Assembly (NCBI RefSeq): GCF_029222925.1
Contig: NZ_JARHUI010000006.1
Span: 248,001 to 312,000 of the forward strand
Reading direction: 5' to 3'
DNA from: Algoriphagus sp. CAU 1675
GTDB lineage: Bacteria > Bacteroidota > Bacteroidia > Cytophagales > Cyclobacteriaceae
DNA length: 64,000 nucleotides
In this document: positions 5,771-20,677 of the stretch, piece by piece
How the letters are laid out: every line of letters starts with the position of its first letter
Numbering within the stretch: position 1 is the first letter of the stretch
The notes under the pieces: generated by a model
Database searches by the model: none
What the model was told of the DNA's origin: nothing
The model's input: only the letters and a program-made list of their open reading frames with translations
Program-made: the position numbers and the translations under genes

Positions 5771-6610
5771 ATGAAAGTAAAATTTATTCTATTTATCTCC
5801 CTTTTCGCCGCTGTCACCTTGACATCAGAAGGATTTGCACAAGGGATTACGGGAAGAGCCTATTATAAGTCCTCCTCTACTTTCAAATTTTCGTTGGACT
5901 CCACTCAGATGGCTCCGGAGCAAATGGCAGAAATCCAGGCCCAGCTTAAAAAGCAGATGGAGCGGGAATACGTATTGTCATTCAATCCAATCGAATCCAA
6001 CTGGAAGCAAGTTGAAAGTTTGGGGGGAGGCCCGGCAACAGCTTCTTCAGGAGGGATGCAAATTGTGATCAATACAGGTAGCCAGGATCGGGTATTGTAT
6101 AAAAACATCGCTGACCAAACTTTTGAACAGGAGCAGGAAATCATGGGAAAGGAATTTCTGATCAAGGACGCTCTGGAGAATGCCGAATGGGAATTGACCG
6201 GGGAGACCAAACAAATTGGGAATTATTCTGCCCAAAAGGCCACGTATACACGGATTGTGGATTCCCAGCGATTTTCCACCGGAATGACGGAAATGGAAAA
6301 TGTGAAGGATACCATCCAAGTGACGGCTTGGTTTACACCCGAAATTCCGGTTCCACATGGCCCTGAAAATTATTTTGGATTGCCAGGATTGATTCTGGAA
6401 TTGCAAAACTCCGGCAGAACGCTCATCTGCGAAAAAATCGAGTTGAATCCTTCCGCCGAACCTGTGGCCATTGTCAGACCCAAAAGAGGAAAAGAGGTGA
6501 CCCGGGAAGAATTTAGAGAGGTTCAGGAAGAAAGTATGAAGCAGATGATGAACCGTTACCAGGGTAAACCAGGAGAAGGAAATCAGTTCACGATCAGAAT
6601 TGGCAACTAA
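5771..6610 (+). CDS. GLPGLI family protein
   Basis: The protein carries the signature YFGLPGLILELQ that names this Bacteroidota family. I place the start at ATG 5771 rather than 5735, because it gives a normal signal peptide (MKVKFILFISLFAAV to GFAQ) and a 279-residue protein. After export it would sit in the periplasm or at the outer membrane. The family's molecular role is not established. GLPGLI genes usually sit beside large TonB-type barrel genes, and here the next gene, 21 nt downstream, is one. A shared role in outer-membrane transport or peptide handling is inferred from this pairing. Confidence 0.9.
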   Translation: MKVKFILFISLFAAVTLTSEGFAQGITGRAYYKSSSTFKFSLDSTQMAPEQMAEIQAQLKKQMEREYVLSFNPIESNWKQVESLGGGPATASSGGMQIVINTGSQDRVLYKNIADQTFEQEQEIMGKEFLIKDALENAEWELTGETKQIGNYSAQKATYTRIVDSQRFSTGMTEMENVKDTIQVTAWFTPEIPVPHGPENYFGLPGLILELQNSGRTLICEKIELNPSAEPVAIVRPKRGKEVTREEFREVQEESMKQMMNRYQGKPGEGNQFTIRIGN

Positions 6611-6631
6611 TACCAAAAAGCAAAACCAACT

Positions 6632-9307
6632 ATGCCTTTTTTGAACCGGTTTTTTGTGATTCTCTTTTTTACGGGAATTACCTTTTCTGCTTTTGCCCAA
6701 AATAAGCCCCTTGTGGGTCAGGTTTTGGATTCGCTTAACCGTCCCATTGCCTATGCCAATGTGGTCGCCATCAACCAAAGCACTCAAAAGATCGGAGGCT
6801 TTGGTATTTCTAATGACGAAGGACGATTCAAAATCACCTTGGCTCCAGGCAATGAATATTTGTTGCGGGTATCTTTTGTGGGTTATCGACAATTTGAAAT
6901 GCCTGTAAAGGAATGGGATTCTGAAGTCCCCATGTTGATCGTTTTGGAGCAGGCCGATACCGAGTTGGGTTTGGTGGAGGTGGTTTCGGAATTGCCTGTC
7001 ACTATGAAAGGGGATACGCTGACCTACAAAACGGATGCTTTTACAACAGGAAATGAGCGGAAACTGGAAGATGTTTTAGAAAAGCTACCGGGCTTTCAAG
7101 TGGACGAAAACGGGGAAGTAAAAGTTCAGGGTAAAAAGGTGGATAAAGTGCTTGTGGATGGCAAAACTTTCTTTGATGGAGATACCAAATTGGCCACCAA
7201 AAACCTGCCTGCAAATGCTGTCGATAGAGTCCAGGTATTAAAAAACTTCAATGAAATCGCTCCTGTTCGAGGTTTGGACAATGACGAGACTTTAGCCTTG
7301 AATATTCAGTTGAAGGATGGGAAAAAGAACATGGTTTTCGGTGATTTGACCGCCGGGGCAGGACCTAAGGAAAGATACCTTGGACATGCAAATACCTTCT
7401 ACTATGCTCCAAAATTGAATATAAACCTCATCGGAGGAACCAACAATGTAGGCGAGCAAACCTTCACCTTGCAGGATTATTTCCGATTTAGTGGAGGAAT
7501 GGCTGGTCTTGGTGGAAGATCAGGCTCCAGAGTTCAGTTCAACAGCGATGATTTGGGTATTCCCATGGCCACTCGCACCAATGCCTTTGATCTGAAAACT
7601 ACCTTGGGTGCCTTGAATTTTAATTTTTCACCCAGCAAAAAGTGGAGACATTCCGGTTTTTTGATTGCATCCACTTCAGATAATCAACTTGGAAGTTCTT
7701 CCCTTCGGACCTACCTAAATTCCGAAGAGAATACCCAGGAGGTTTTGAATTCTGCAAGTCGGGTCAATAATAAATCGGGTTTGGGGAAATATTCCTTGAC
7801 CTATACCCCAAAAGAAGAAACCTACCTGAAGTACAGCTTCTTTGGAAAACTGTCTGATATTGAAAACAGCAACTGGTTGAACTCTACAGTTGGTCAAAAT
7901 CAGCAAAATATCGGAGCAGTAAATACCAGAAATCCATACAGCTGGCAGCATCGGTTGGATTGGTTTCATGCTCCCAATGAAAGCCATGTTTTTTCCATGG
8001 AATTTAACGCGGAAAGGAAATTCAACGATCCTCTTTTTGATTTAACCTCCAACCTAAAGCCTTTGGCAGGAATGTATCCGATTCAGGATTCGGAATCTTA
8101 CCGATTTTTCCAAAATCAGGAAATTAGTAGCCATACCTTGGAAGGAGCTTTGAATTACTATTACATCTTAAACCCTACCAATCATTTGAACTGGTCTTTG
8201 GGATATCAAAACCTTTTTCAATCCCTTACCGGTAATTTGAATCAGGAGGGAAGTCAGGAAAATTTCGAGGAATTTGACAATGACAATGAATTTGGCCTTC
8301 AGGACTTTTATCTGGGGATGACTTGGAAGACCAAGTGGGGAAAATGGATTATCAGTCCTTCCGCATATTTACATCGATACGCTTGGAGAGACCTTCAATT
8401 TACCGATGAAATGAATTTTGATAAGACTCTGATTCTTCCGGGACTTTATACGAAGTGGAATATTAAATCCAACAAATCCCTGACCTATCGATTCCAAACA
8501 GAAGCCAATTTCATGGATATCCAAAAGCTTGCTCAGGGGTATGTTTTACAGGATTACAATGCCATTTTCCAGGGAAACCGAGCGCTTGACAATGGACTGT
8601 TTTCCAACCATAGTTTGAGTTATAATCACTTTGACATGTTTTCCGGACTGACTCTTTTTGGAAATATGAATTACCAAAGAAAGCGAAATGAAATCACCAC
8701 CATCACTGATTTCTCCGGAATTAACAGGCTGTTGAGTCTGATCAATGTGGAACCGATCAATGAAACTTTGAATGGAGATATTCGACTGGATAAATCCCTC
8801 AATAAAATGAAGTTTGAGGTTGGAGGAAGATGGAATGCCTATAAAACCAATTTGTTTCTTGGGAATCTTCCCACTGAAAACAGACAGTTTTCACAAACTT
8901 ATGATACCAAGTTGACAACGACTTTTTTCAAAGTTTTGGAGGTGGATTTGGGATATGCGATTACTGCCAACAATTACAATTCAGGAAATATTCAGAACAC
9001 CTTTACCACCCATAGCCCAAAGCTGGAAATCGACTTGGATATCTTCAAAGGGTTAAAGCTCAAGTCTGATTATACCTATAATGCCTACCTCAACAAGGCT
9101 ACCGGAACTCAAAGCGATTTTGATTTTCTAAATGCTTTTTTGATTTACCAAGGGAAAAAGAGTCCATGGGAATTCCAACTTTCTGTTTGGAATATCCTGG
9201 ATACCCGATCCATTCGTAGAGATAGCTTTAGCGAAAGCCTGATCAGTACCTATTCTTACTTAGTGCAGCCTAGGTATGGGCTGTTCACTATCAAATGGGA
9301 TATTTAA
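6632..9307 (+). CDS. TonB-dependent-receptor-type outer-membrane barrel
   Basis: This 891-residue protein begins with a signal peptide (ending AFAQ). A carboxypeptidase-regulatory-like domain follows at about residues 25-110 (GQVLDSLNRPIAYANVVAIN...). A plug-like region comes next (LEDVLEKLPGFQVDENGEVKV, VDRVQVLKNF). The remaining 600 residues are rich in aromatic alternating strands, as expected for a C-terminal barrel, ending GLFTIKWDI. It would be an outer-membrane transporter or barrel energised from the inner membrane. No clear N-terminal TonB box can be named. It forms an operon with the GLPGLI gene and overlaps the 3' end of the convergent GlcG-like gene by four bases. Confidence 0.9.
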   Translation: MPFLNRFFVILFFTGITFSAFAQNKPLVGQVLDSLNRPIAYANVVAINQSTQKIGGFGISNDEGRFKITLAPGNEYLLRVSFVGYRQFEMPVKEWDSEVPMLIVLEQADTELGLVEVVSELPVTMKGDTLTYKTDAFTTGNERKLEDVLEKLPGFQVDENGEVKVQGKKVDKVLVDGKTFFDGDTKLATKNLPANAVDRVQVLKNFNEIAPVRGLDNDETLALNIQLKDGKKNMVFGDLTAGAGPKERYLGHANTFYYAPKLNINLIGGTNNVGEQTFTLQDYFRFSGGMAGLGGRSGSRVQFNSDDLGIPMATRTNAFDLKTTLGALNFNFSPSKKWRHSGFLIASTSDNQLGSSSLRTYLNSEENTQEVLNSASRVNNKSGLGKYSLTYTPKEETYLKYSFFGKLSDIENSNWLNSTVGQNQQNIGAVNTRNPYSWQHRLDWFHAPNESHVFSMEFNAERKFNDPLFDLTSNLKPLAGMYPIQDSESYRFFQNQEISSHTLEGALNYYYILNPTNHLNWSLGYQNLFQSLTGNLNQEGSQENFEEFDNDNEFGLQDFYLGMTWKTKWGKWIISPSAYLHRYAWRDLQFTDEMNFDKTLILPGLYTKWNIKSNKSLTYRFQTEANFMDIQKLAQGYVLQDYNAIFQGNRALDNGLFSNHSLSYNHFDMFSGLTLFGNMNYQRKRNEITTITDFSGINRLLSLINVEPINETLNGDIRLDKSLNKMKFEVGGRWNAYKTNLFLGNLPTENRQFSQTYDTKLTTTFFKVLEVDLGYAITANNYNSGNIQNTFTTHSPKLEIDLDIFKGLKLKSDYTYNAYLNKATGTQSDFDFLNAFLIYQGKKSPWEFQLSVWNILDTRSIRRDSFSESLISTYSYLVQPRYGLFTIKWDI

Positions 9308-9762
9308 TAAGCTGCCAATCCAGCTGCAGCGATGATTCCATCTTGTGCAGAAGTGACACCGGATACGCCAATTGATCCGACGATTATCCCGTCTTTGAAA
9401 ATTGGAAGTCCTCCTTCCACACCTACAGCGCCAGGAAGTCCACCTATTCTGGCGCTGCCTTCACCTTTCATAGCATCTTCAAAGACTTTTGTGGGCCTTT
9501 TGAAATAGACAGCGGATTTCGCTTTGGCCTGGGCTACATCCACGCTGCCGATTTGTACGCCATCCATTCGGATCAGGGAAAGCAAATGGCCTCCATCATC
9601 CAAGATGGCAATGACTACGTTCCGGCCTTCTGCCTTGGCTTTTTCCTCAGCGGCGGCAGTAATCCTACGGGCATCTTCAAGATTGAGATAGGGTTTGGTT
9701 TGGTTTTGGGCGGCTGTAACAAAAGGCAGGCTCAGAAAGAAAAGAAGGAGTAGGTGCTTCAT
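9304..9762 (-). CDS. GlcG/HbpS-like heme-binding family protein, secreted
   Basis: The 152-residue product has a signal peptide (residues 1-18) followed by one GlcG/HbpS domain: LEDARRITAAAEEKAKAEG, VVIAILDDGGHLLSLIRMDG, AQAKAKSAVYFKRPT and GSIGVSGV. The family has a small profilin-like fold. Some members bind heme or degradation products, while others (GlcG, PduO C-terminal domain) have unclear roles. The export signal suggests a periplasmic location. It stands alone, convergent to the TonB-type barrel gene. Confidence 0.88.
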   Translation of the reverse strand: MKHLLLLFFLSLPFVTAAQNQTKPYLNLEDARRITAAAEEKAKAEGRNVVIAILDDGGHLLSLIRMDGVQIGSVDVAQAKAKSAVYFKRPTKVFEDAMKGEGSARIGGLPGAVGVEGGLPIFKDGIIVGSIGVSGVTSAQDGIIAAAGLAAY

Positions 9763-9896
9763 GTGATTGTTGGAATAAGTAGAAACGGAAATTACTGAAA
9801 TTCCCTGATAGCCCCTTACATTTCTTTTTTAAGGCTTTGACAGATTCTTTTTTTTGACTTTCTGAACTTTCCCTAAATTCTGAACAAATCCTGGTT

Positions 9897-11264
9897 ATGA
9901 TGAAAAAAATATTACTGAGTCTAATCTTATTGCCCAATCTGGTGTGGTCGCAATCCCATGAGGAAAATATCAAACTCATTTTTGATACGGAGCTTTCCAA
10001 TGGGCATACCTATGAAAACCTGAGGTATCTATGCAAAGAAATTGGCAATAGAATATCTGGATCTCCTCAAGCCGCCGCTGCTGTGGAGTATACCAAGCAG
10101 CTAATGGAAAGTTATGGATTTGATACCGTTTACCTGCAACCAGTGATGGTACCCAAATGGGTGAGGGGCAAAAAGGATGAGGTGAAAGTCCTTAATTCCG
10201 ATAAACTGGGGTCTGTTGAGTTGAGTGCTCTTGCGCTGGGGAATACCGAGGGAACGGGGACAGGGGGCTTGGTTGGAGAGGTAGTGGAAGTCAAAGGGTT
10301 GGATGGTTTGAAAGCCGCTGGTGATCTGGTGAAAGGAAAGATTGTTTTCCTCAATGGTCCTATGGACCCTACTTTGGTCAATACCTTTCAGGCCTATAGC
10401 GGAGCAGTGGGACAGCGTGGTTCCGGAGCGGCAGAAGCAGCAAAATTGGGAGCCAAAGCAGTCTTGGTACGATCCATGAGCAACAGAATAGACGATATCC
10501 CTCATACCGGAAATCAGCGATATAATCCGGATTATCCCAAAATTCCGGCGTTGGCGATCAGTACCCAGGATTCTGAACTTCTTTCGAGTTTATTGAAGGA
10601 CCAGAAGGATTTGAAAGTCTATTTGGAGTCCCATGGTAAGATGCATGAAGAAGTGCTTTCCTATAATGTGATAGGGGAAATCCGGGGAAGTGAGAGACCG
10701 GATGAGATTATTGCAGTAGGGGGGCATTTGGATTCCTGGGATGTTGGAGAAGGAGCTCATGATGACGGAGCAGGTTGTATGCAGGGAATAGAGGTGTTGA
10801 GGTTGTACCGTGAACTGGGTTGGAAACCAAAACGGACGCTTCGTGCAGTGATGTGGATGAATGAGGAAAATGGATTGCGGGGAGGTACTGAATATGCCCG
10901 TGTGGCAAAGGAAAAAGGTGAAAATCACATTGCGGCCATTGAGTCTGATTCAGGAGGTTTTTTACCAATTGGATTCTCTTCAACCGGTACAGACAAGCAG
11001 CGTCAAAAACTTCAATCCTGGAAGTCGTATTTTACGCCGTATAATATCTGGAAATTGGATGTGCCGGGAGGAGGAGCAGATATTGGACCTCTTCGAGATC
11101 AGGGACCTTTGCTCGTTGGTTTACATCCGGACTCCCAGCGTTATTTTATGTATCACCACACTGCTGCAGATGTGTTTGAGGCAGTGGATCAAAGGGAGTT
11201 GGAGTTAGGAGCCGCAGCAATGACAGCTTTGGTTTATCTTTTGGATAGGGAAGGTTTGGAATAA
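9897..11264 (+). CDS. Secreted M28 metallopeptidase, carboxypeptidase Q-like
   Basis: This 455-residue protein has a signal peptide (MMKKILLSLILLPNLVWSQ). A protease-associated (PA) insertion lies at about residues 90-220, within a di-zinc M28 aminopeptidase/carboxypeptidase core. The metal and catalytic residues are visible in order: GGHLDSWD, GAHDDGAG, MNEENGLRGG (catalytic/metal Glu pair), ESDSGG and the late YHHTAAD. The layout matches plasma glutamate carboxypeptidase (CPQ) relatives, which release amino acids from short peptides. ATG 9897 and 9900 are equally possible starts. It is monocistronic and followed by a hairpin terminator. Confidence 0.92.
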   Translation: MMKKILLSLILLPNLVWSQSHEENIKLIFDTELSNGHTYENLRYLCKEIGNRISGSPQAAAAVEYTKQLMESYGFDTVYLQPVMVPKWVRGKKDEVKVLNSDKLGSVELSALALGNTEGTGTGGLVGEVVEVKGLDGLKAAGDLVKGKIVFLNGPMDPTLVNTFQAYSGAVGQRGSGAAEAAKLGAKAVLVRSMSNRIDDIPHTGNQRYNPDYPKIPALAISTQDSELLSSLLKDQKDLKVYLESHGKMHEEVLSYNVIGEIRGSERPDEIIAVGGHLDSWDVGEGAHDDGAGCMQGIEVLRLYRELGWKPKRTLRAVMWMNEENGLRGGTEYARVAKEKGENHIAAIESDSGGFLPIGFSSTGTDKQRQKLQSWKSYFTPYNIWKLDVPGGGADIGPLRDQGPLLVGLHPDSQRYFMYHHTAADVFEAVDQRELELGAAAMTALVYLLDREGLE

Positions 11265-11280
11265 GAATGGTATATAGCAT

Positions 11281-11322
11281 AAAAATAGCCCCGGAAATTT
11301 CCAGGGCTATTTTTCTTTTTTG
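11281..11322. terminator. Bidirectional hairpin terminator
   Basis: AAAAATAGCCCC and GGGCTATTTTT arms form a long stem with one mismatch. T-runs lie on both sides, so it can end the M28 peptidase transcript on the plus strand and the Hsp20 transcript on the minus strand. Confidence 0.8.
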
Positions 11323-11336
11323 CCAACAAACTGCTT

Positions 11337-11783
11337 TTAACCCACTTTGATTTCTTTGGCAGGTTTTTTTGTCATAACCTCCATTTTAGGGAGAACAATT
11401 TTTAAAATACCATTTTCATACTTGGCGTCAATCTTATCCTCCTTCACATTTTCGGGAAGGGTGAAAGATCTCCTGATGCTGGAATAGGAAAATTCTTTTT
11501 TACGGTAATTTTCTTTTTCCTCTTCGGAAGATTTTTCTTTTTCTGCTGAGATGCATAAAACTCCATCTTCAACGTCTACTTTAAAATCTTCTTTTCCAAA
11601 ACCCGGAGCAGACAATTCCAATTTGAATTCCTTTTCATTTTCGATTACGTTGGCAGAGGGAACCTCCACTGAGTTTTCCGGTAACCAAAACTTATCAGTC
11701 CAATCAAATGGATTTTCTGCACCAAAGAAGTCTTTAACCATTTTTGGCCAAAGTCCTCTGTCTTTTCTTGCTACTGTGCCCAT
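11337..11783 (-). CDS. Hsp20/alpha-crystallin small heat-shock protein
   Basis: The 148-residue product is the usual length for a bacterial small heat-shock protein. An alpha-crystallin domain spans about residues 40-135. It starts with VIENEKEFKLELSAPGF, has the central VLCISAEKE, and the closing YENGILKIVLPK with the A-x-x-x-G-V/I-L type motif. The short tail contains the basic PAKEIKV, similar to the I-x-I oligomer anchor. It would be an ATP-independent holdase in the cytoplasm. No promoter of the TAnnTTTG type was recognised upstream. Confidence 0.95.
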   Translation of the reverse strand: MGTVARKDRGLWPKMVKDFFGAENPFDWTDKFWLPENSVEVPSANVIENEKEFKLELSAPGFGKEDFKVDVEDGVLCISAEKEKSSEEEKENYRKKEFSYSSIRRSFTLPENVKEDKIDAKYENGILKIVLPKMEVMTKKPAKEIKVG

Positions 11784-11903
11784 GGTTGTAATTTTTTAGT
11801 TTTAAAACCTATTTTAATCTTGATTAAAACTCAAAAATCCTTACCGTCAATCCAATGATATAAATCAGGAAACCAATATTTTAGAGTCATTTAGAAAGCA
11901 CTT

Positions 11904-13013
11904 TTATCTGCTGAGAAAAATGGTTTTCCCTTCATAAGCACTTATTCGGGCTGCTTCCAAAATTTCCATTACTACCATGTTGTTTTTGAGCCCGTACAAG
12001 TCGTATTCGGGCAGTTCCAGCTCATTTCGGACTACTGCCTTCAGCAATAAAAATGGATCAGGGTAGGGAGGATCCATTTCGGGAAGCTTGAAAATCTGTT
12101 CATCAAAACCGTCGTATCTCTGGGCAATCCGAACTCTCAGTTGGTTTCTGTTGTCTGCAAATATTGCCCCGGTCATCCCATAGATTTCCATATCTTTTCT
12201 TCCAATAGGCCAGTCCCAGGATGCCTGAATGATTACTTGGGCATGTGCATAATTGACAATAATCGTAGCATCGTCTTCTACCTTCGGGTTGTTTTCTGGT
12301 TGAAGTTGCTGGGTAACTGCTGTGACTGATATCGGAACTTCCCCATTCATCAGCCAGGTCATGAGGTTGGCTCCATAGCATCCAAAATCCATCAAAGCTC
12401 CCCCGCCATTTAAGGTGGGGTCCGAGAGCCATTCCAGAAATTCCGGACTGACCCCGATTTTTTTTGGTCCCCGGTGACCGTCTCGAACGATGACTTTTTG
12501 GATTTCACCTACTGTTCCGGTTCGAACCAGCTCATAGGCTTTATGGTTGCTGGGATACCAACTCGTTTCATAATTGGTCAACAAGTGGATTTGATGTCTG
12601 TCTGCCAGTTCTTTCATTTTCATGGCATGCTCCAGGCTTACAGCAAGGGGTTTTTCCACCATCACATGGATACCTCGCGGGGCAGCCGATTCTACTACAG
12701 CCAAGTGGTCAAAGGTGTTTCCAAAAGCTGCAACTGCCTCCGGTTGGGTTTTTTCAAGCATTTGCTGGAGATCTTCGTGAACCAAATCCATGGAAAAACC
12801 ATATTGATTGGCCAGTTTTTGGGCAAGCTGGGTGTTTTTCTCCGCAATACCGACAATTTCATAATCGCCTCTATTCATACTTTGGAGTACCCAGCCCACA
12901 TGCCCATGGGTAAGTCCGGCAATAGCTAGTCGGAGTTTCTTTTCCTGGGAAAATCCATGAATGTGGACAAATAGAAATAATAGGAGTATTAGGTTTTTGG
13001 ATGAGGGTTTCAT
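11904..13013 (-). CDS. Secreted Gfo/Idh/MocA family oxidoreductase
   Basis: This 369-residue protein has an N-terminal signal peptide (ending GFSQ), then a Rossmann domain opening with LRLAIAGLTHGHVGW. The hallmark EKPLAVSLEHAM comes at about residue 140. The C-terminal substrate domain includes GGGALMDFGCYGANL. Family members use NAD(P) to oxidise or reduce sugars and polyols. Exported versions are common in Cytophagales and presumably need an exported or tightly bound cofactor. The glycine motif is unusual (GLTHGH rather than GxGxxG). The gene is divergent from the M28 gene at 13118. Confidence 0.88.
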   Translation of the reverse strand: MKPSSKNLILLLFLFVHIHGFSQEKKLRLAIAGLTHGHVGWVLQSMNRGDYEIVGIAEKNTQLAQKLANQYGFSMDLVHEDLQQMLEKTQPEAVAAFGNTFDHLAVVESAAPRGIHVMVEKPLAVSLEHAMKMKELADRHQIHLLTNYETSWYPSNHKAYELVRTGTVGEIQKVIVRDGHRGPKKIGVSPEFLEWLSDPTLNGGGALMDFGCYGANLMTWLMNGEVPISVTAVTQQLQPENNPKVEDDATIIVNYAHAQVIIQASWDWPIGRKDMEIYGMTGAIFADNRNQLRVRIAQRYDGFDEQIFKLPEMDPPYPDPFLLLKAVVRNELELPEYDLYGLKNNMVVMEILEAARISAYEGKTIFLSR

Positions 13014-16323: not shown

Positions 16324-16986
16324 TTGGTCAATCCCAGAAAAGTAGAGCAATTGCTCAATTCACCGATTAATTTTGATATAGATCATACCCTCAAGAGGGG
16401 TTGGGAATTATTTAAAGCCCAGCCCCTGATTTTGATTTCCTTTTTTGTGCTGATTGTGGCAATTTCTGCGGGGTCTGCATTTTTTTTAGAGGACTTTTCC
16501 ACAATAATCAGTCTCTTGGTTAGTCCTCCACTTACGGCGGGGTTCTATTTGGTAGCCAACCGGATCAGTAGGGGAGAGGAAGTTCAATTTGGGAATTGCT
16601 TTGACGGCTTCAAGTTTTGGTTGCCTGTAGTTGGGGTAAATATCGTAGTGGGAATTATTACCGTTCTGGGAGCTTTAGCCTTGATTTTACCGGGAATTTA
16701 TCTGGGCGTTGCCTATAGCTTTGCCATGCCCTTTGTGCTTTTTGCAGGAACGGAGTTTTGGACTTCCATGGAGTTGAGCCGAAAGCTGATTACTAAAATA
16801 TGGTGGAGGTTTTTTGCCTTCCTCTTATTGCTTTTGGTGATTAATATTGTTGGATTACTCTTTTTGGGAGTTGGCCTGCTGATTACGGGACCTTTTTCTT
16901 ATATGGCGATATATGTGGCATTTGAGGATTTGACGGGGGATCTTTTGGTTGAAGAGCCCGAAGCACCTCAGATTATTCATGAGTAA
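16324..16986 (+). CDS. Uncharacterised multi-pass membrane protein
   Basis: The 220-residue protein has about five or six hydrophobic segments: ILISFFVLIVAISAG, IISLLVSPPLTAGFYLVA, LPVVGVNIVVGIITVLGALAL, IYLGVAYSFAMPFVLF and FFAFLLLLLVINIVGLLFLG. A charged amphipathic N-terminus (residues 1-30) comes first. No enzyme motif is visible. Related Bacteroidota proteins have sometimes been called 'carotene monooxygenase' without support. The likely start is TTG 16324, because no ATG lies nearby. It follows the synthase gene closely. Its stop codon sits inside the left 25-bp repeat of the insert and originally overlapped the 3' end of the acyltransferase gene. Confidence 0.75.
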   Translation: MVNPRKVEQLLNSPINFDIDHTLKRGWELFKAQPLILISFFVLIVAISAGSAFFLEDFSTIISLLVSPPLTAGFYLVANRISRGEEVQFGNCFDGFKFWLPVVGVNIVVGIITVLGALALILPGIYLGVAYSFAMPFVLFAGTEFWTSMELSRKLITKIWWRFFAFLLLLLVINIVGLLFLGVGLLITGPFSYMAIYVAFEDLTGDLLVEEPEAPQIIHE

Positions 16987-17001
16987 GAATCATTGCCTCC
17001 A
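16977..17001. repeat. Left 25-bp direct repeat of the insert
   Basis: This copy begins TCATGAGTAAGAATCATTGC and then has C at the only variable position. It spans the stop codon (TAA) of the membrane protein gene and, on the other strand, a relic of the acyltransferase 3' end ending in CAT GAA TAA. Confidence 0.85.
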
Positions 17002-17021
17002 TTGGCTTTTTACTCTAAATA

Positions 17022-17144
17022 TTAAGAAAATTCCTTGTTCAAGTATAAGGTGTCCTCCTCGGTGCAGGAAAATGAAAACAACCCAAGCAATAAAAATAGA
17101 TTGACAAATTTAACAAAAACGGGTTTTATTGATTTAGTAAACAT
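17022..17144 (-). pseudogene. Truncated paralogue of the insert lipoprotein gene
   Basis: An ATG at 17144 starts a 40-residue peptide with a lipoprotein signal: SFSCTEEDTLYLNKEF aligns with SFSCADEDTLYLSKEF of the intact gene at 17243-17923, and the lipid Cys is residue 27 in both. It ends early near the left repeat, so all of the mature protein is missing. Its start overlaps the end of the peptidase relic by 11 nt, the same overlap as in the intact pair. Confidence 0.85.
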
Positions 17145-17223
17145 AGCTCTGTACCAATTGATTTACCTGGGTGGATTGTAAATTATTATTTCTACCTAAA
17201 AGGTTAACTTTGAATTGGCTTAA
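17134..17223 (-). pseudogene. C-terminal relic of a second metallopeptidase-like gene
   Basis: Thirty codons, including the stop, encode LSQFKVNLLGRNNNLQSTQV followed by NQLVQSYVY. They match the very C-terminus of the intact gene (RNNNLQSTQVNQLVQSYGY). No further upstream coding sequence of this copy remains, since the intact lipoprotein gene ends 20 nt away. The relic shows that the peptidase-lipoprotein pair was once in tandem. Confidence 0.85.
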
Positions 17224-17242
17224 TATATACTTATTTATTATG

Positions 17243-17923
17243 TTATTCTTCAACCACAAAAGGGAAAAAGCTTCTAGCTTGCGAGCTTGAATTATCAGAT
17301 GTATCAAATTGGGAAGCTGTATATTTGGGAAATAAGTGATAATTAAATGGAATACCAGAATTTACCAAAGTGAAACTTGGACCAACACCAGCAACTATAT
17401 TTTTGTAGCCAGAGGGAGCATCTAATGCAATAGCAGGTTTTGAAAAGTCACATAAAAATGAAATATTAAATACTCCCGGTTTTTTCACGATCATTTTACC
17501 TGAGAAGACATAATTTTCGCCAGTAAAAACAAGTTCTAGTTCTCCTCCTCCAGATCCGAAAGGATAAATTCCTCCAATTTGATTAATAAACTGAAACGAT
17601 TCAATTGCACCTGGTTGTCCACCTAAGGGTTGAGATTTATCAATAAGCTCAACTATCCTTACGGAAGTACCAAAATCATATTCTTCAAAGAGGTATGTTA
17701 TAGTGTTTTCTCTATCCGATAAGATCTTGGAGAAATTTATATTAACAATGATGGTATCACCAACTTTGTAAATCTCTTTTTGGGGCATAACTTCCACTGG
17801 CAACTGAAATTCTTTGCTCAGATACAGTGTATCCTCATCTGCGCAAGAAAATGAAGCCAGCATTAATAAGGAAAGAAGCTGGGCAATTAGCCCAGCCTTT
17901 TTTATTATTTTGCTAGTACCCAT
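17243..17923 (-). CDS. Small lipoprotein paired with the metallopeptidase-like gene
   Basis: This 226-residue protein has a basic N-terminus, a hydrophobic stretch and a lipobox SFSC (Cys27), so it should be anchored to the periplasmic or outer surface of a membrane. The mature part is rich in predicted beta strands (KVGDTIIVNINFSKIL, GELELVFTGENYVFSGKMIV, VFNISFLCDF), like an immunoglobulin-like domain, but I do not recognise the family. The gene overlaps the stop of the upstream peptidase gene by 11 nt, which suggests coupled translation. A truncated paralogue lies just downstream. It may be a partner, anchor or inhibitor of the peptidase. That is inference from position only. Confidence 0.75.
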   Translation of the reverse strand: MGTSKIIKKAGLIAQLLSLLMLASFSCADEDTLYLSKEFQLPVEVMPQKEIYKVGDTIIVNINFSKILSDRENTITYLFEEYDFGTSVRIVELIDKSQPLGGQPGAIESFQFINQIGGIYPFGSGGGELELVFTGENYVFSGKMIVKKPGVFNISFLCDFSKPAIALDAPSGYKNIVAGVGPSFTLVNSGIPFNYHLFPKYTASQFDTSDNSSSQARSFFPFVVEE

Positions 17924-19831
17924 AGCTTTGTACTAATTGGTTTACCTGAGTGGATTGCAGATTATTGTTTCTACTCAAAAGGTCTGTTTTAAACTGTCCG
18001 ACTGAAAGCACTTCACTATTTAGACTTTGGAAAATCATAGCAGGAGTATAAAGATTGGCGTTGTCTACAACTCCTGTGCTTGAAGGTTCACCTGTGTCAG
18101 TGAGATCATAATACAACCCTCTAGGGATCCAATAGTTTGAGTTGGATGTGTCTGATGGTTTCTGTGATTCTAAGTTGTTTAGTAAATTATTATACACAAA
18201 CTGGGCATTACTATTTCCAGTAAAACTTCCATAATACATACTTCCATATAGCCCTCCAATATAAGCTCCCCAGGCTTCCGCAATAGCGATTCGGCCACTA
18301 CCTATTGAATTTTTGGTACCATATCCTCCATTGGATATAATGTAGGAAATATAATCTGTCCAATAACCGTTCCCAACAAGGGTATAATGGGTAGCATGAG
18401 CCATTTCATGGTATATGGTTTCTGTTATTTGGGCAGCAGATCTAGTTTGAGTTTCACTATCACCGTATCTTAAGGTGATATCAGGTAATAGGTTTTGCAG
18501 GATTTGTTTTGCAGCTACCCCCATTGATCCGCTTGTGCCCAACAAGAAAAAATCAATACCACTAGATATTAAGGAAGTATTGAATAAAGTTCTAAGCATA
18601 GGGGCTGAAGCCGAACTTGTAATTCGAGAAGAGATCCAGATATTTAAAGCATCAGTCGCATAGTTTATTCCAAATTGGCCGTTTTTGAGGCTGGCACCTC
18701 TAATTGTATTCCAAGTATGACCTGCTACCCACTGTGCAGCCGCGTTGCTATTGGGGTCGGAATTATATGGGAATGTATAAGAAACATTCTCCAGCTCTGC
18801 CGTACTGAATTCTCCCAAAGTCTTTTTAACAGGAATAGCAAACTGCCAAAATTTCCAGAGATTATTAAGCCCTCTAATTTTTTTGGACCCATCAGTAAAG
18901 TGAACTGAAACAATTGCTTTTTTTCGATAATTGACAGAGATTGAGTATTGCCCATTGGATCTAGTCAGCGCTCTTCGAAGTTTAAACCATCTTCTGGTTT
19001 TGACCAAAAGTCCTCCCAATGGTACATCTACATTAATTGAATTATCCCTGATTTTTATAGTTCCAGCAGCGGTATTGGTTGTATTAATTCTTGCTTTTAC
19101 TTCGGTTGGATCCAGGATTTCATCCTTGTTTCCAGACAGTTCCATCATTACATTGTAAAGTTCTATCCGGTCAATTCCCATGTTATCTAGTGCTTTTGTG
19201 GCTTCCAATGTGTTGTTGACTGATTTTTTCTTAGCTACAGCACAAGCAGGATCCGTGTCTGCAGGATCATAGCATCCTGGACCTGTTGGATCCCATGGAT
19301 CCGCATCCTGAATATCGCCATCGTCCTCATGATATAAATAAACATCAGAAATTATGTCGTATGGAACATTGACTGATATCGGGTATTGGAATGGTACTAA
19401 GGTGTAAAAATATGTGATGCCGTCCGGTCCGACCGCTGGGTCATGGTAATAATCCCCGATAAATTGCACGTCTTGATCTAATGGGTAATCCCATAAATCA
19501 TAATTAGTCAAATCTAAAGCAGCAAGCTGGTCATAATTTTGAGGCTTAAATTTGACATATCTGTGAGTTGGACTTAGACTTGATGAGCAATTGGAACAAT
19601 TAAGCCTCTTATTCTCTTTTTGGTATTCTTTTTCAAGAATTTCGATTGCAGCCTTTACATTCTCAATCGTAAATGGGTTTTCTTTTTTTTTTCCCTAAGA
19701 CCATAAGACTCTCAGGATCCCCTTTTCCGGTTACTTCTTCTCCGCTTGAAAAAGGGGGGGGGATTCTCTACCGTACAAGCGCTGATGAGAAAAAAAGAGA
19801 AAATTGCAAAGTGTTTTCTAATGTTTTTCAT
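17913..19831 (-). pseudogene. Secreted HExxH metallopeptidase-like lipoprotein, frame broken at two homopolymer tracts
   Basis: The long open frame runs from about 19694 to 17913 and contains the zinc motif HEMAH (18396-18410), with a later glutamate candidate in IAEAWGAYIGG, typical of gluzincin-like peptidases. It has no credible start. A lipoprotein signal (MKNIRKHFAIFSFFLISAC) begins at ATG 19831 in another frame. Removing one C from the C9 tract (19754-19762) and one A from the A10 tract (19683-19692, both read on the minus strand) joins signal and body into one protein of 638 residues. The middle frame is open between the tracts (GEEVTGKGDPESLMVLG). The gene is either off by slippage, decayed, or misread in the tracts. 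Substrate and family are unknown. The next gene overlaps its end by 11 nt. Confidence 0.75.
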
Positions 19832-19951
19832 AAAAATGATTTTGAGTAGATTAAATAATTGATCCTAAAGTAATAAAAGTTTTAAAATTTACTATTCTCT
19901 TAGTAAAAGGATGAAAATTTTTTTAATAAATCAAATCACTTGATAATCTGA

Positions 19952-20677
19952 TCACTCATGAGTAAGAATCATTGCTTCCAGCCGTGATCGGCAATTCATA
20001 GTAAAATCATTGACTGCGGAATCCGATGCTTTGGGTGGATTCATGGCCTTTGAAAAATAAATTCTGACTTTCCCAGGTCTCAACAATAGAGAACCTCTTT
20101 GCATGAGTTTATCAGCTCCTAGGACGATTAGAGGCATGATGGGAATTCCGGTCTCCACAGAGAGCCTGAAAGCTCCTTTTTGAAAAGGTAATAATTCGGC
20201 ATCCGTGTTGTTTCGGGTCCCTTCAGGTGCTACAACAATAGATATTCCTTTTTCCAGTATCCCTACCAGTTTCTTGACACTGTTTTTCCTGGACTCTGCA
20301 TCGGAGCGGTCTACCCATACCGCGAGGCGGCCAACTATTTGCCCAAAGACAGGAATTTTGGAAAGTTCCTTCTTTCCCAAAGCTCTAATTTCCTGAGGGA
20401 TCGCTATAGGAATAATAGGGGCATCCAAAAAAGAGCGGTGGTTGAATATATAGATATAGGGCTGGGAAGGATCGATATTTTCTTTTCCATATATCTCATA
20501 TCTTATCCCACATAGGAATGACCATATTCCAGCCCAATAGCGAATGAATTTTATGGAAAGTTTGCCACCCTTCGGACTGAGGAGAACCGGTAAGACGATG
20601 AATAACCCAAAAACCAGCATTAGGGCGACAAAGAGGATAGCGGCATAGCAGGTGTAAAGGATTCTCAGGATTTTCAT
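19952..20677 (-). CDS. 1-acyl-sn-glycerol-3-phosphate acyltransferase (PlsC-like)
   Basis: The 241-residue protein has one N-terminal membrane segment (about residues 9-33). The acyltransferase motifs follow: NHRSFLD (HX4D catalytic motif, near residue 80), the VDRSDAESR block, VAPEGTRNN (substrate-binding EGTR) and GIPIMPLIVLG. It transfers an acyl chain to lysophosphatidate or a similar lysolipid at the inner membrane. Its last codons lie in the right repeat of the insert, so its current 3' end seems to have been supplied by the duplication. The stop is now TGA, while the relic at the left repeat shows TAA. Confidence 0.93.
   Translation of the reverse strand: MKILRILYTCYAAILFVALMLVFGLFIVLPVLLSPKGGKLSIKFIRYWAGIWSFLCGIRYEIYGKENIDPSQPYIYIFNHRSFLDAPIIPIAIPQEIRALGKKELSKIPVFGQIVGRLAVWVDRSDAESRKNSVKKLVGILEKGISIVVAPEGTRNNTDAELLPFQKGAFRLSVETGIPIMPLIVLGADKLMQRGSLLLRPGKVRIYFSKAMNPPKASDSAVNDFTMNCRSRLEAMILTHE
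19956..19980. repeat. Right 25-bp direct repeat of the insert
   Basis: It matches 16977-17001 at 24 of 25 positions. Here it lies inside the acyltransferase gene and encodes its last codons. The single difference is a silent third-codon change (GAA against GAG). Confidence 0.85.

What the first reader, a model, noticed from the sequence alone, without database searches (positions are those of the whole stretch)
16977..19980. A 3-kb segment entered exactly where two convergent genes end, duplicating 25 bp and rebuilding one gene end
Seen: a 25-bp direct repeat (one mismatch) flanks the segment. Both copies, read on the minus strand, encode EAMILTHE plus a stop, the end of the acyltransferase. 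The left copy also carries the stop of the membrane protein gene. Inference: the two genes once overlapped, and the element integrated there and supplied a replacement 3' end with a silent change, as integrative elements do at tRNA and gene ends. Yet there is no integrase or transposase in it. This could be a small satellite element mobilised by other factors, or a remnant.
Basis: partly seen in the sequence, partly recalled or inferred. Interest (0 to 1): 0.7.

Follow-up and report, generated by a model that had tools for sequence, protein, structure and literature searches.

The report
Foreign gene pair inserted between convergent genes
In one Algoriphagus bacterium, a 3-kb block of foreign DNA, carrying a broken protease gene and a partner lipoprotein gene, has landed exactly where two neighbouring genes overlap at their ends; about 34 bp of that overlap is now present twice, so neither gene was damaged, and no enzyme for moving DNA is present in the block.

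Summary
The two copies are the only near-matches in the 3.8-Mb genome, and the repeat extends to 34 nt (4 mismatches). The insertion is now proven by comparison: in 56 of 69 congeneric loci the membrane-protein and acyltransferase genes overlap by 10-29 nt, with a single copy of this sequence. Each repeat copy carries a relic of the other gene, so it is a duplicated target. The satellite/integrative-element reading is not supported. There is no recombinase, no other genome copy of the site, and no conserved ends (the left end cuts through a lipoprotein gene fossil). Unrelated integrase-less DNA occupies the same junction in 8 other genomes, without a repeat. [quoted passage not shown] The acyltransferase is phylogenetically displaced (AU p 0.003), suggesting flanking homologous recombination. 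The cargo is a patchily distributed Bacteroidota pair: an uncharacterised HExxHxxH lipoprotein metalloprotease, broken here by two frameshifts at homopolymer tracts, and a lipoprotein. In Belliella the pair expands into arrays of up to five [protease C-tail + variant lipoprotein] cassettes. A fossil of such a cassette forms the left end here. That cargo is the more interesting part; its function (effector/immunity?) is untested.

The parts
16324..16986 (+). membrane protein gene ('mem', DUF2189/BPSS1780-like), left flank; its 3' end lies in the left repeat copy
   Evidence: orthologues in 70 of 72 genomes of the genus
16968..17001 (.). left copy of the 34-nt target duplication (25-bp core 16977-17001); carries a 15-nt relic of the acyltransferase 3' end after the mem stop
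   Evidence: (38.5 bits to the profile of empty-site acyltransferase ends)
17013..17105 (-). fossil of a second lipoprotein gene (N-terminal 31 aa only, 58% identical, 1 stop), cut by the left border of the insertion
17137..17229 (-). fossil second copy of the metalloprotease C-terminal tail (33 aa, 74% identical), directly downstream of the lipoprotein gene, as in the Belliella arrays
17243..17923 (-). intact lipoprotein gene (226 aa); its start overlaps the metalloprotease stop
   Evidence: 74% identical to its Echinicola pacifica counterpart
17913..19831 (-). secreted-lipoprotein metalloprotease gene, HExxHxxH...EAW (long open part 17913-19511, 532 aa); reading frame broken by two frameshifts at a C9 tract (19754-19762) and an A10 tract (19683-19692)
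19947..19980 (.). right copy of the 34-nt target duplication (25-bp core 19956-19980); carries a relic of the mem 3' end beyond the acyltransferase stop
19952..20677 (-). 1-acyl-glycerol-3-phosphate acyltransferase gene ('acy'), right flank; phylogenetically displaced relative to its neighbours

Best explanation
An integrase-less foreign DNA fragment inserted once into the overlap between the convergent mem and acy genes. It carried a metalloprotease-lipoprotein operon plus the torn start of the next cassette. About 34 bp of the overlap was duplicated, so each gene kept its own native end ('insertion with long target duplication'). The junction is a tolerant docking site that repeatedly takes up unrelated DNA in this genus. 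The likely route is uptake of DNA followed by repair or illegitimate joining at a staggered break, with further spread by homologous recombination in the flanking core genes. Shown: the insertion, its empty site, the duplication, the recurrence of the site and the absence of a recombinase. Inferred: the joining mechanism, and that acy replacement and insertion are linked.
For: Empty sites: the two genes overlap by 10-29 nt in 56 of 69 congeneric loci, with one copy of the sequence. Each repeat copy holds a relic of the other gene. The cargo is in only 3 of 72 genomes of the genus, at other loci in the other two, and is 76% identical over 2.66 kb of DNA to Echinicola pacifica. The block has lower GC: 36.6% versus 42.0%. 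The left end lies inside a lipoprotein gene fossil, so it is not a natural element end. Five congeners carry 0.6-2.4 kb of unrelated lipoprotein/OMP-type genes, and three have a SusC/SusD block with acy lost, at the same junction, none with a recombinase and none with the acy relic. mem and the CBS-domain gene place the genome in clade A (97-99% SH-aLRT) but acy does not (AU p 0.0027), as expected where flanking core genes recombine. Many hotspots lack mobile elements and show recombination at flanking core genes (PMC5635113). Insertion with long target duplication is a described pattern (Nobusato et al. 2000, cited in PMC1643837).
Against: The genome has no Ku, so canonical bacterial NHEJ is not available for joining staggered ends. 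The duplication is private to this genome among the occupied sites, so no second instance supports the mechanism. The acy displacement rests on one long-branched protein of 241 aa. No very close strain with and without the block was available: the nearest relatives are 77-78% identical in mem.
Confidence: 0.62

Rival explanations
1. Site-specific integration of a small element at a gene 3' end, mobilised in trans by another element's tyrosine or serine recombinase; the 25-34 bp repeat is attL/attR.
For: Direct repeat at a gene 3' end that restores the gene; precise junction; several different inserts at the same junction in the genus.
Against: No recombinase in the block or among the ORFs examined in the other occupied sites; the 25-mer has no third copy in the genome; the other occupied sites have no repeat; the left border lies inside a gene fossil; the cargo is absent from the phage records and IMG/VR viral contigs searched and has only one distant (24%) plasmid relative.
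Confidence: 0.1
2. Import by homologous recombination: a donor already carrying the block beside its own acyltransferase gave block plus acy. The left repeat is the recipient's gene overlap and the right repeat is the donor's orthologous overlap.
For: acy is displaced from clade A while mem and the CBS-domain gene are not; the copies differ at 4 of 34 positions; the left copy matches several clade A sites slightly better than the right copy does, by one base.
Against: Both copies share GAGTAAGAATCATTGC, whereas the clade A empty sites have C and A (CAGAA...CATAG) at the two diagnostic positions. A native left copy would need parallel changes at both. It also only moves the original insertion into the donor.
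Confidence: 0.22
3. Ancestral arrangement: the block was there first and was lost with precise fusion of the two gene ends in the other species.
For: A 34-nt repeat could mediate RecA-dependent or slippage deletion (general knowledge; no tool result supports it).
Against: The overlap is present across all sub-clades of the genus, while the cargo is in 3 of 72 genomes and at different loci; the empty sites would need many independent identical deletions.
Confidence: 0.02

Closest known systems
Insertion with long target duplication (Nobusato et al. 2000, Helicobacter pylori; cited in PMC1643837 and PMC4978471)
   Same: Gene block present in one genome and absent in relatives, flanked by a direct repeat that is single-copy at the empty site; no linked transposase.
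   Different: The described cases are often restriction-modification genes in strains of one species; here it is a protease/lipoprotein pair, seen by comparison between species, inside a gene-gene overlap.
Hotspots lacking mobile elements (Oliveira et al. 2017, PMC5635113)
   Same: One core-gene interval holds unrelated accessory genes in different genomes, without integrases, and a flanking core gene shows phylogenetic conflict.
   Different: The inserts are small (0.6-5 kb) and the interval is empty in about 80% of species; formal hotspot statistics were not run here.
Integrative elements and satellites that integrate at gene 3' ends
   Same: Direct repeat that restores the 3' end of a gene.
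   Different: No integrase, no defined ends, no other use of the site.
Tandem immunity-gene arrays (EsaG/TipC, PMC9484751) and lipoprotein toxin/immunity pairs (SitA/SitI, PMC5562445)
   Same: In related loci the partner gene is tandemly repeated, with conserved blocks beside a variable middle; the larger protein is a lipoprotein with a partner gene directly downstream.
   Different: Each repeated unit also carries a copy of the protease's conserved, non-catalytic C-tail; toxicity and protection are untested; the variable part is in the partner, not in the large protein's C-terminus.

Membership tests
Insertion with long target duplication | Relatives have an empty site with one copy of the repeat | tested here: met
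   56 of 69 congeneric loci
Insertion with long target duplication | Both flanks carry duplicated resident sequence, longer than usual transposon duplications | tested here: met
   34 nt, each copy with a relic of the other gene
Insertion with long target duplication | No linked recombinase | tested here: met
Integrative or satellite element at a gene 3' end | Own integrase, or an att site shared with an element that has one | tested here: not met
   no integrase in the block; the site has no third copy in the genome. Integrases elsewhere in the genome were not surveyed
Integrative or satellite element at a gene 3' end | Defined, conserved element ends | tested here: not met
   left border inside a lipoprotein gene fossil; the related Echinicola, Algoriphagus AK58 and A. 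aquaeductus loci do not share the borders
Integrative or satellite element at a gene 3' end | Excised circular form | not testable with these tools
   needs PCR or reads
Hotspot lacking mobile elements | Unrelated accessory genes between the same two core genes in different genomes | tested here: met
   8 other genomes, at least six events
[quoted passage not shown]
   acy rejected from clade A (p 0.0027), mem and the CBS-domain gene not displaced; one long branch
Polymorphic toxin-immunity system (cargo) | Constant N-terminus with variable C-terminal toxin domain | tested here: not met
   the C-tail is conserved and the HExxHxxH core lies upstream of it
Polymorphic toxin-immunity system (cargo) | Diversified partner genes in tandem | tested here: met
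   five 713-bp units in Belliella kenyensis; lipoprotein middle 36-48% identical versus 88-92% for the conserved C-terminal blocks
Polymorphic toxin-immunity system (cargo) | Toxicity neutralised by the partner | not testable with these tools
   needs experiments

The most novel reading that the evidence does not exclude
The cargo belongs to an undescribed Bacteroidota competition (or surface-variation) system: a lipoprotein metalloprotease whose partner lipoprotein diversifies in tandem cassettes. Each cassette carries a copy of the protease's conserved C-tail as a recombination handle, so a new partner can be swapped in behind the protease. In this genome the protease may be switched on and off by slippage at its C9 and A10 tracts.
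Probability: 0.2. Interest if true: 0.7.

Novelty: new member of a known kind. Interest (0 to 1): 0.4.

Why it matters
It is a clean between-species example of DNA entering a genome at an overlap of two genes without damaging either and without a recombinase. It also shows that the same junction is used repeatedly by unrelated cargo, a testable model for how hotspots without mobile elements form. The cargo points to an uncharacterised protease-lipoprotein family with cassette arrays.

Tried and rejected
An att-like site elsewhere in the genome: none. The same repeat at other occupied junctions: the profile search found only this case, with a marginal score for G027. NHEJ: no Ku in this genome. 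Mobile vehicle for the cargo: no phage or viral match and one 24% match on a Chryseobacterium plasmid. Family assignment of the protease and lipoprotein: no Pfam, NCBIfam, PADLOC or PHROG family above cut-off, and no solved relative by sequence for the protease. AlphaFold model of the protease: mean pLDDT 62, too weak to rely on. Fold search and a lipoprotein model could not be run because the machine was busy. RNA families in the region: none. Neighbouring RHS-like genes near the Algoriphagus AK58 copy did not reach a Pfam cut-off, so that link stays a visual impression. My first ribosomal-protein S1 query (used) was in the wrong frame; it was corrected and no conclusion rests on the earlier hits.

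Full report
Check of the observation. The 25-bp repeat is present at the stated coordinates with one mismatch and extends to 34 nt with four mismatches (16968-17001 and 19947-19980). Nothing else within three mismatches exists in the window or in the whole 3.81-Mb, 17-contig genome. Both copies encode EAMILTHE plus a stop on the minus strand, and the left copy carries the stop of the membrane protein gene.

The insertion is real. The window lies in the genus Algoriphagus, inferred because congener contigs match the records of Algoriphagus sp. AK58 (G038) and A. aquaeductus (G004). I located the membrane protein gene in 70 of 72 genomes of the genus and read 69 loci from 68 genomes beyond the window's own. 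In 56 loci the membrane protein and acyltransferase genes are convergent and overlap by 10-29 nt. Typical sites read ACTCATGAGTAAGAATCATTGCTTCTAAT or ACTCATGAGTCAGAATCATAGCCTC, with a single copy. In 4 loci the genes abut within 3-8 nt and in one they are 107 nt apart. So the ancestral state is an overlap and the window's state is derived.

The duplication is resident sequence. The left copy continues 15 nt past the membrane-protein stop into what was acyltransferase coding sequence. The right copy continues past the acyltransferase stop into what was membrane-protein coding sequence. A profile built from the empty sites scores the window's left flank at 38.5 bits, far above random pieces of the same loci (95th percentile -8 bits). 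This is a long target duplication in which each gene keeps its own end.

The junction is used repeatedly, but not by one kind of element. Five congeners have 0.6-2.4 kb of unrelated DNA there, coding for a DUF4136 protein, TIG-domain and beta-barrel proteins, or proteins with no family. Three related genomes carry a SusC/SusD block in place of the acyltransferase, whose orthologue is absent from their genomes. None of the ORFs examined is a recombinase. None of these sites has the acyltransferase relic; G027 is marginal. The repeat is therefore private to the window, and the site recurs without it. That argues against a shared integrase. A published survey found that half of hotspots show no evidence of mobile elements, 27% lack integrases and transposases altogether, and flanking core genes recombine more than others (PMC5635113). 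The pattern of a flanking repeat without a transposase has been described as insertion with long target duplication (Nobusato et al. 2000, as cited in PMC1643837, and PMC3154945).

History of the flanks. Trees of the membrane protein and of the CBS-domain enzyme put this genome in a 16-genome clade (99% and 97% SH-aLRT), and ribosomal protein S1 puts it next to that clade. The acyltransferase does not follow: holding it with the clade is rejected (AU p 0.0027). Both repeat copies share GAGTAAGAATCATTGC, while the clade's empty sites read CAGAA...CATAG at the two diagnostic positions. The simplest reading is that the acyltransferase end was replaced by recombination and that the duplication arose from that one sequence. 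The order of events, and whether block and acyltransferase came together, cannot be settled here. This rests on one long-branched protein and is moderate evidence.

Mechanism. Shown: insertion, target duplication, no recombinase, arbitrary left end, recurrence of the site. Inferred: joining at a staggered break or during repair of incoming DNA. Ku is absent from this genome (present in 10 of 72 genomes of the genus), so if end-joining was used it was not the Ku pathway, unless Ku was lost later.

The cargo. The lipoprotein (17243-17923) and the metalloprotease (17913-19831) form a stop-start overlapping pair on the minus strand. The protease family has a lipobox-type start, a region weakly like a carboxypeptidase-regulatory domain, and an invariant HExxHxxH with a downstream E-x-W. 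It matches no Pfam or NCBIfam family above cut-off. It occurs patchily: 36 of 295 family genomes at E<=0.001, and in Cyclobacteriaceae, Flavobacteriaceae, Chitinophaga and Bacteroidales. The nearest lipoprotein is in Echinicola pacifica (74%), not in the two other Algoriphagus carriers (43-44%), which points to transfer between genera. In this genome the protease frame is broken by frameshifts at a C9 tract, the only G/C run of 7 or more in the window, and at an A10 tract. Related intact copies exist. Decay, phase variation and assembly error cannot be told apart here.

Cassette arrays. In Belliella kenyensis and B. calami the full protease gene is followed by tandem units, five of 713 bp in B. 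kenyensis. Each unit holds a copy of the protease's last 60-77 residues and a variant lipoprotein with a variable middle (36-48% pairwise identity) and conserved C-terminal blocks (88-92%). Shorter versions occur in Nitritalea, Shiella and a flavobacterial MAG. The window's left end is a fossil of such a unit: a 33-aa tail piece and a 31-aa lipoprotein start, cut by the insertion border. This resembles tandem immunity-gene clusters that evolve by recombination through conserved blocks (PMC9484751). The repeated tail is not the catalytic part, however, and no activity has been tested, so I do not file it as a polymorphic toxin system.

Verdict. The insertion is demonstrated. The element reading is not supported. 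The event is a new member of a known kind, and the cargo family deserves separate study.

Noticed in passing
L079 (Belliella calami) 6200-12100; L080 (Belliella kenyensis) 6500-11700: Arrays of up to five units, each a C-terminal protease tail plus a variant small lipoprotein, behind a full metalloprotease gene.
   Followed up: partly
window 19683-19692 and 19754-19762: A10 and C9 homopolymer tracts where the metalloprotease frame breaks; the C9 run is the only G/C run of 7 or more in the 64-kb window. Possible phase variation, decay or assembly error.
   Followed up: partly
L033, L034, L035 (G049, G071, G068): A SusC/SusD pair replaces the acyltransferase at the same junction, and the acyltransferase orthologue is absent from these genomes.
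   Followed up: partly
L076 21-5273 (Algoriphagus sp. AK58) and L081 2280-2456 (A. aquaeductus): The metalloprotease pair lies beside ORFs that look like RHS-repeat ends ('VHDPLAEK' motif); no Pfam cut-off was reached.
   Followed up: partly
L090 (G013), junction: A 107-nt spacer instead of an overlap between the same two genes; origin not studied.
   Followed up: no
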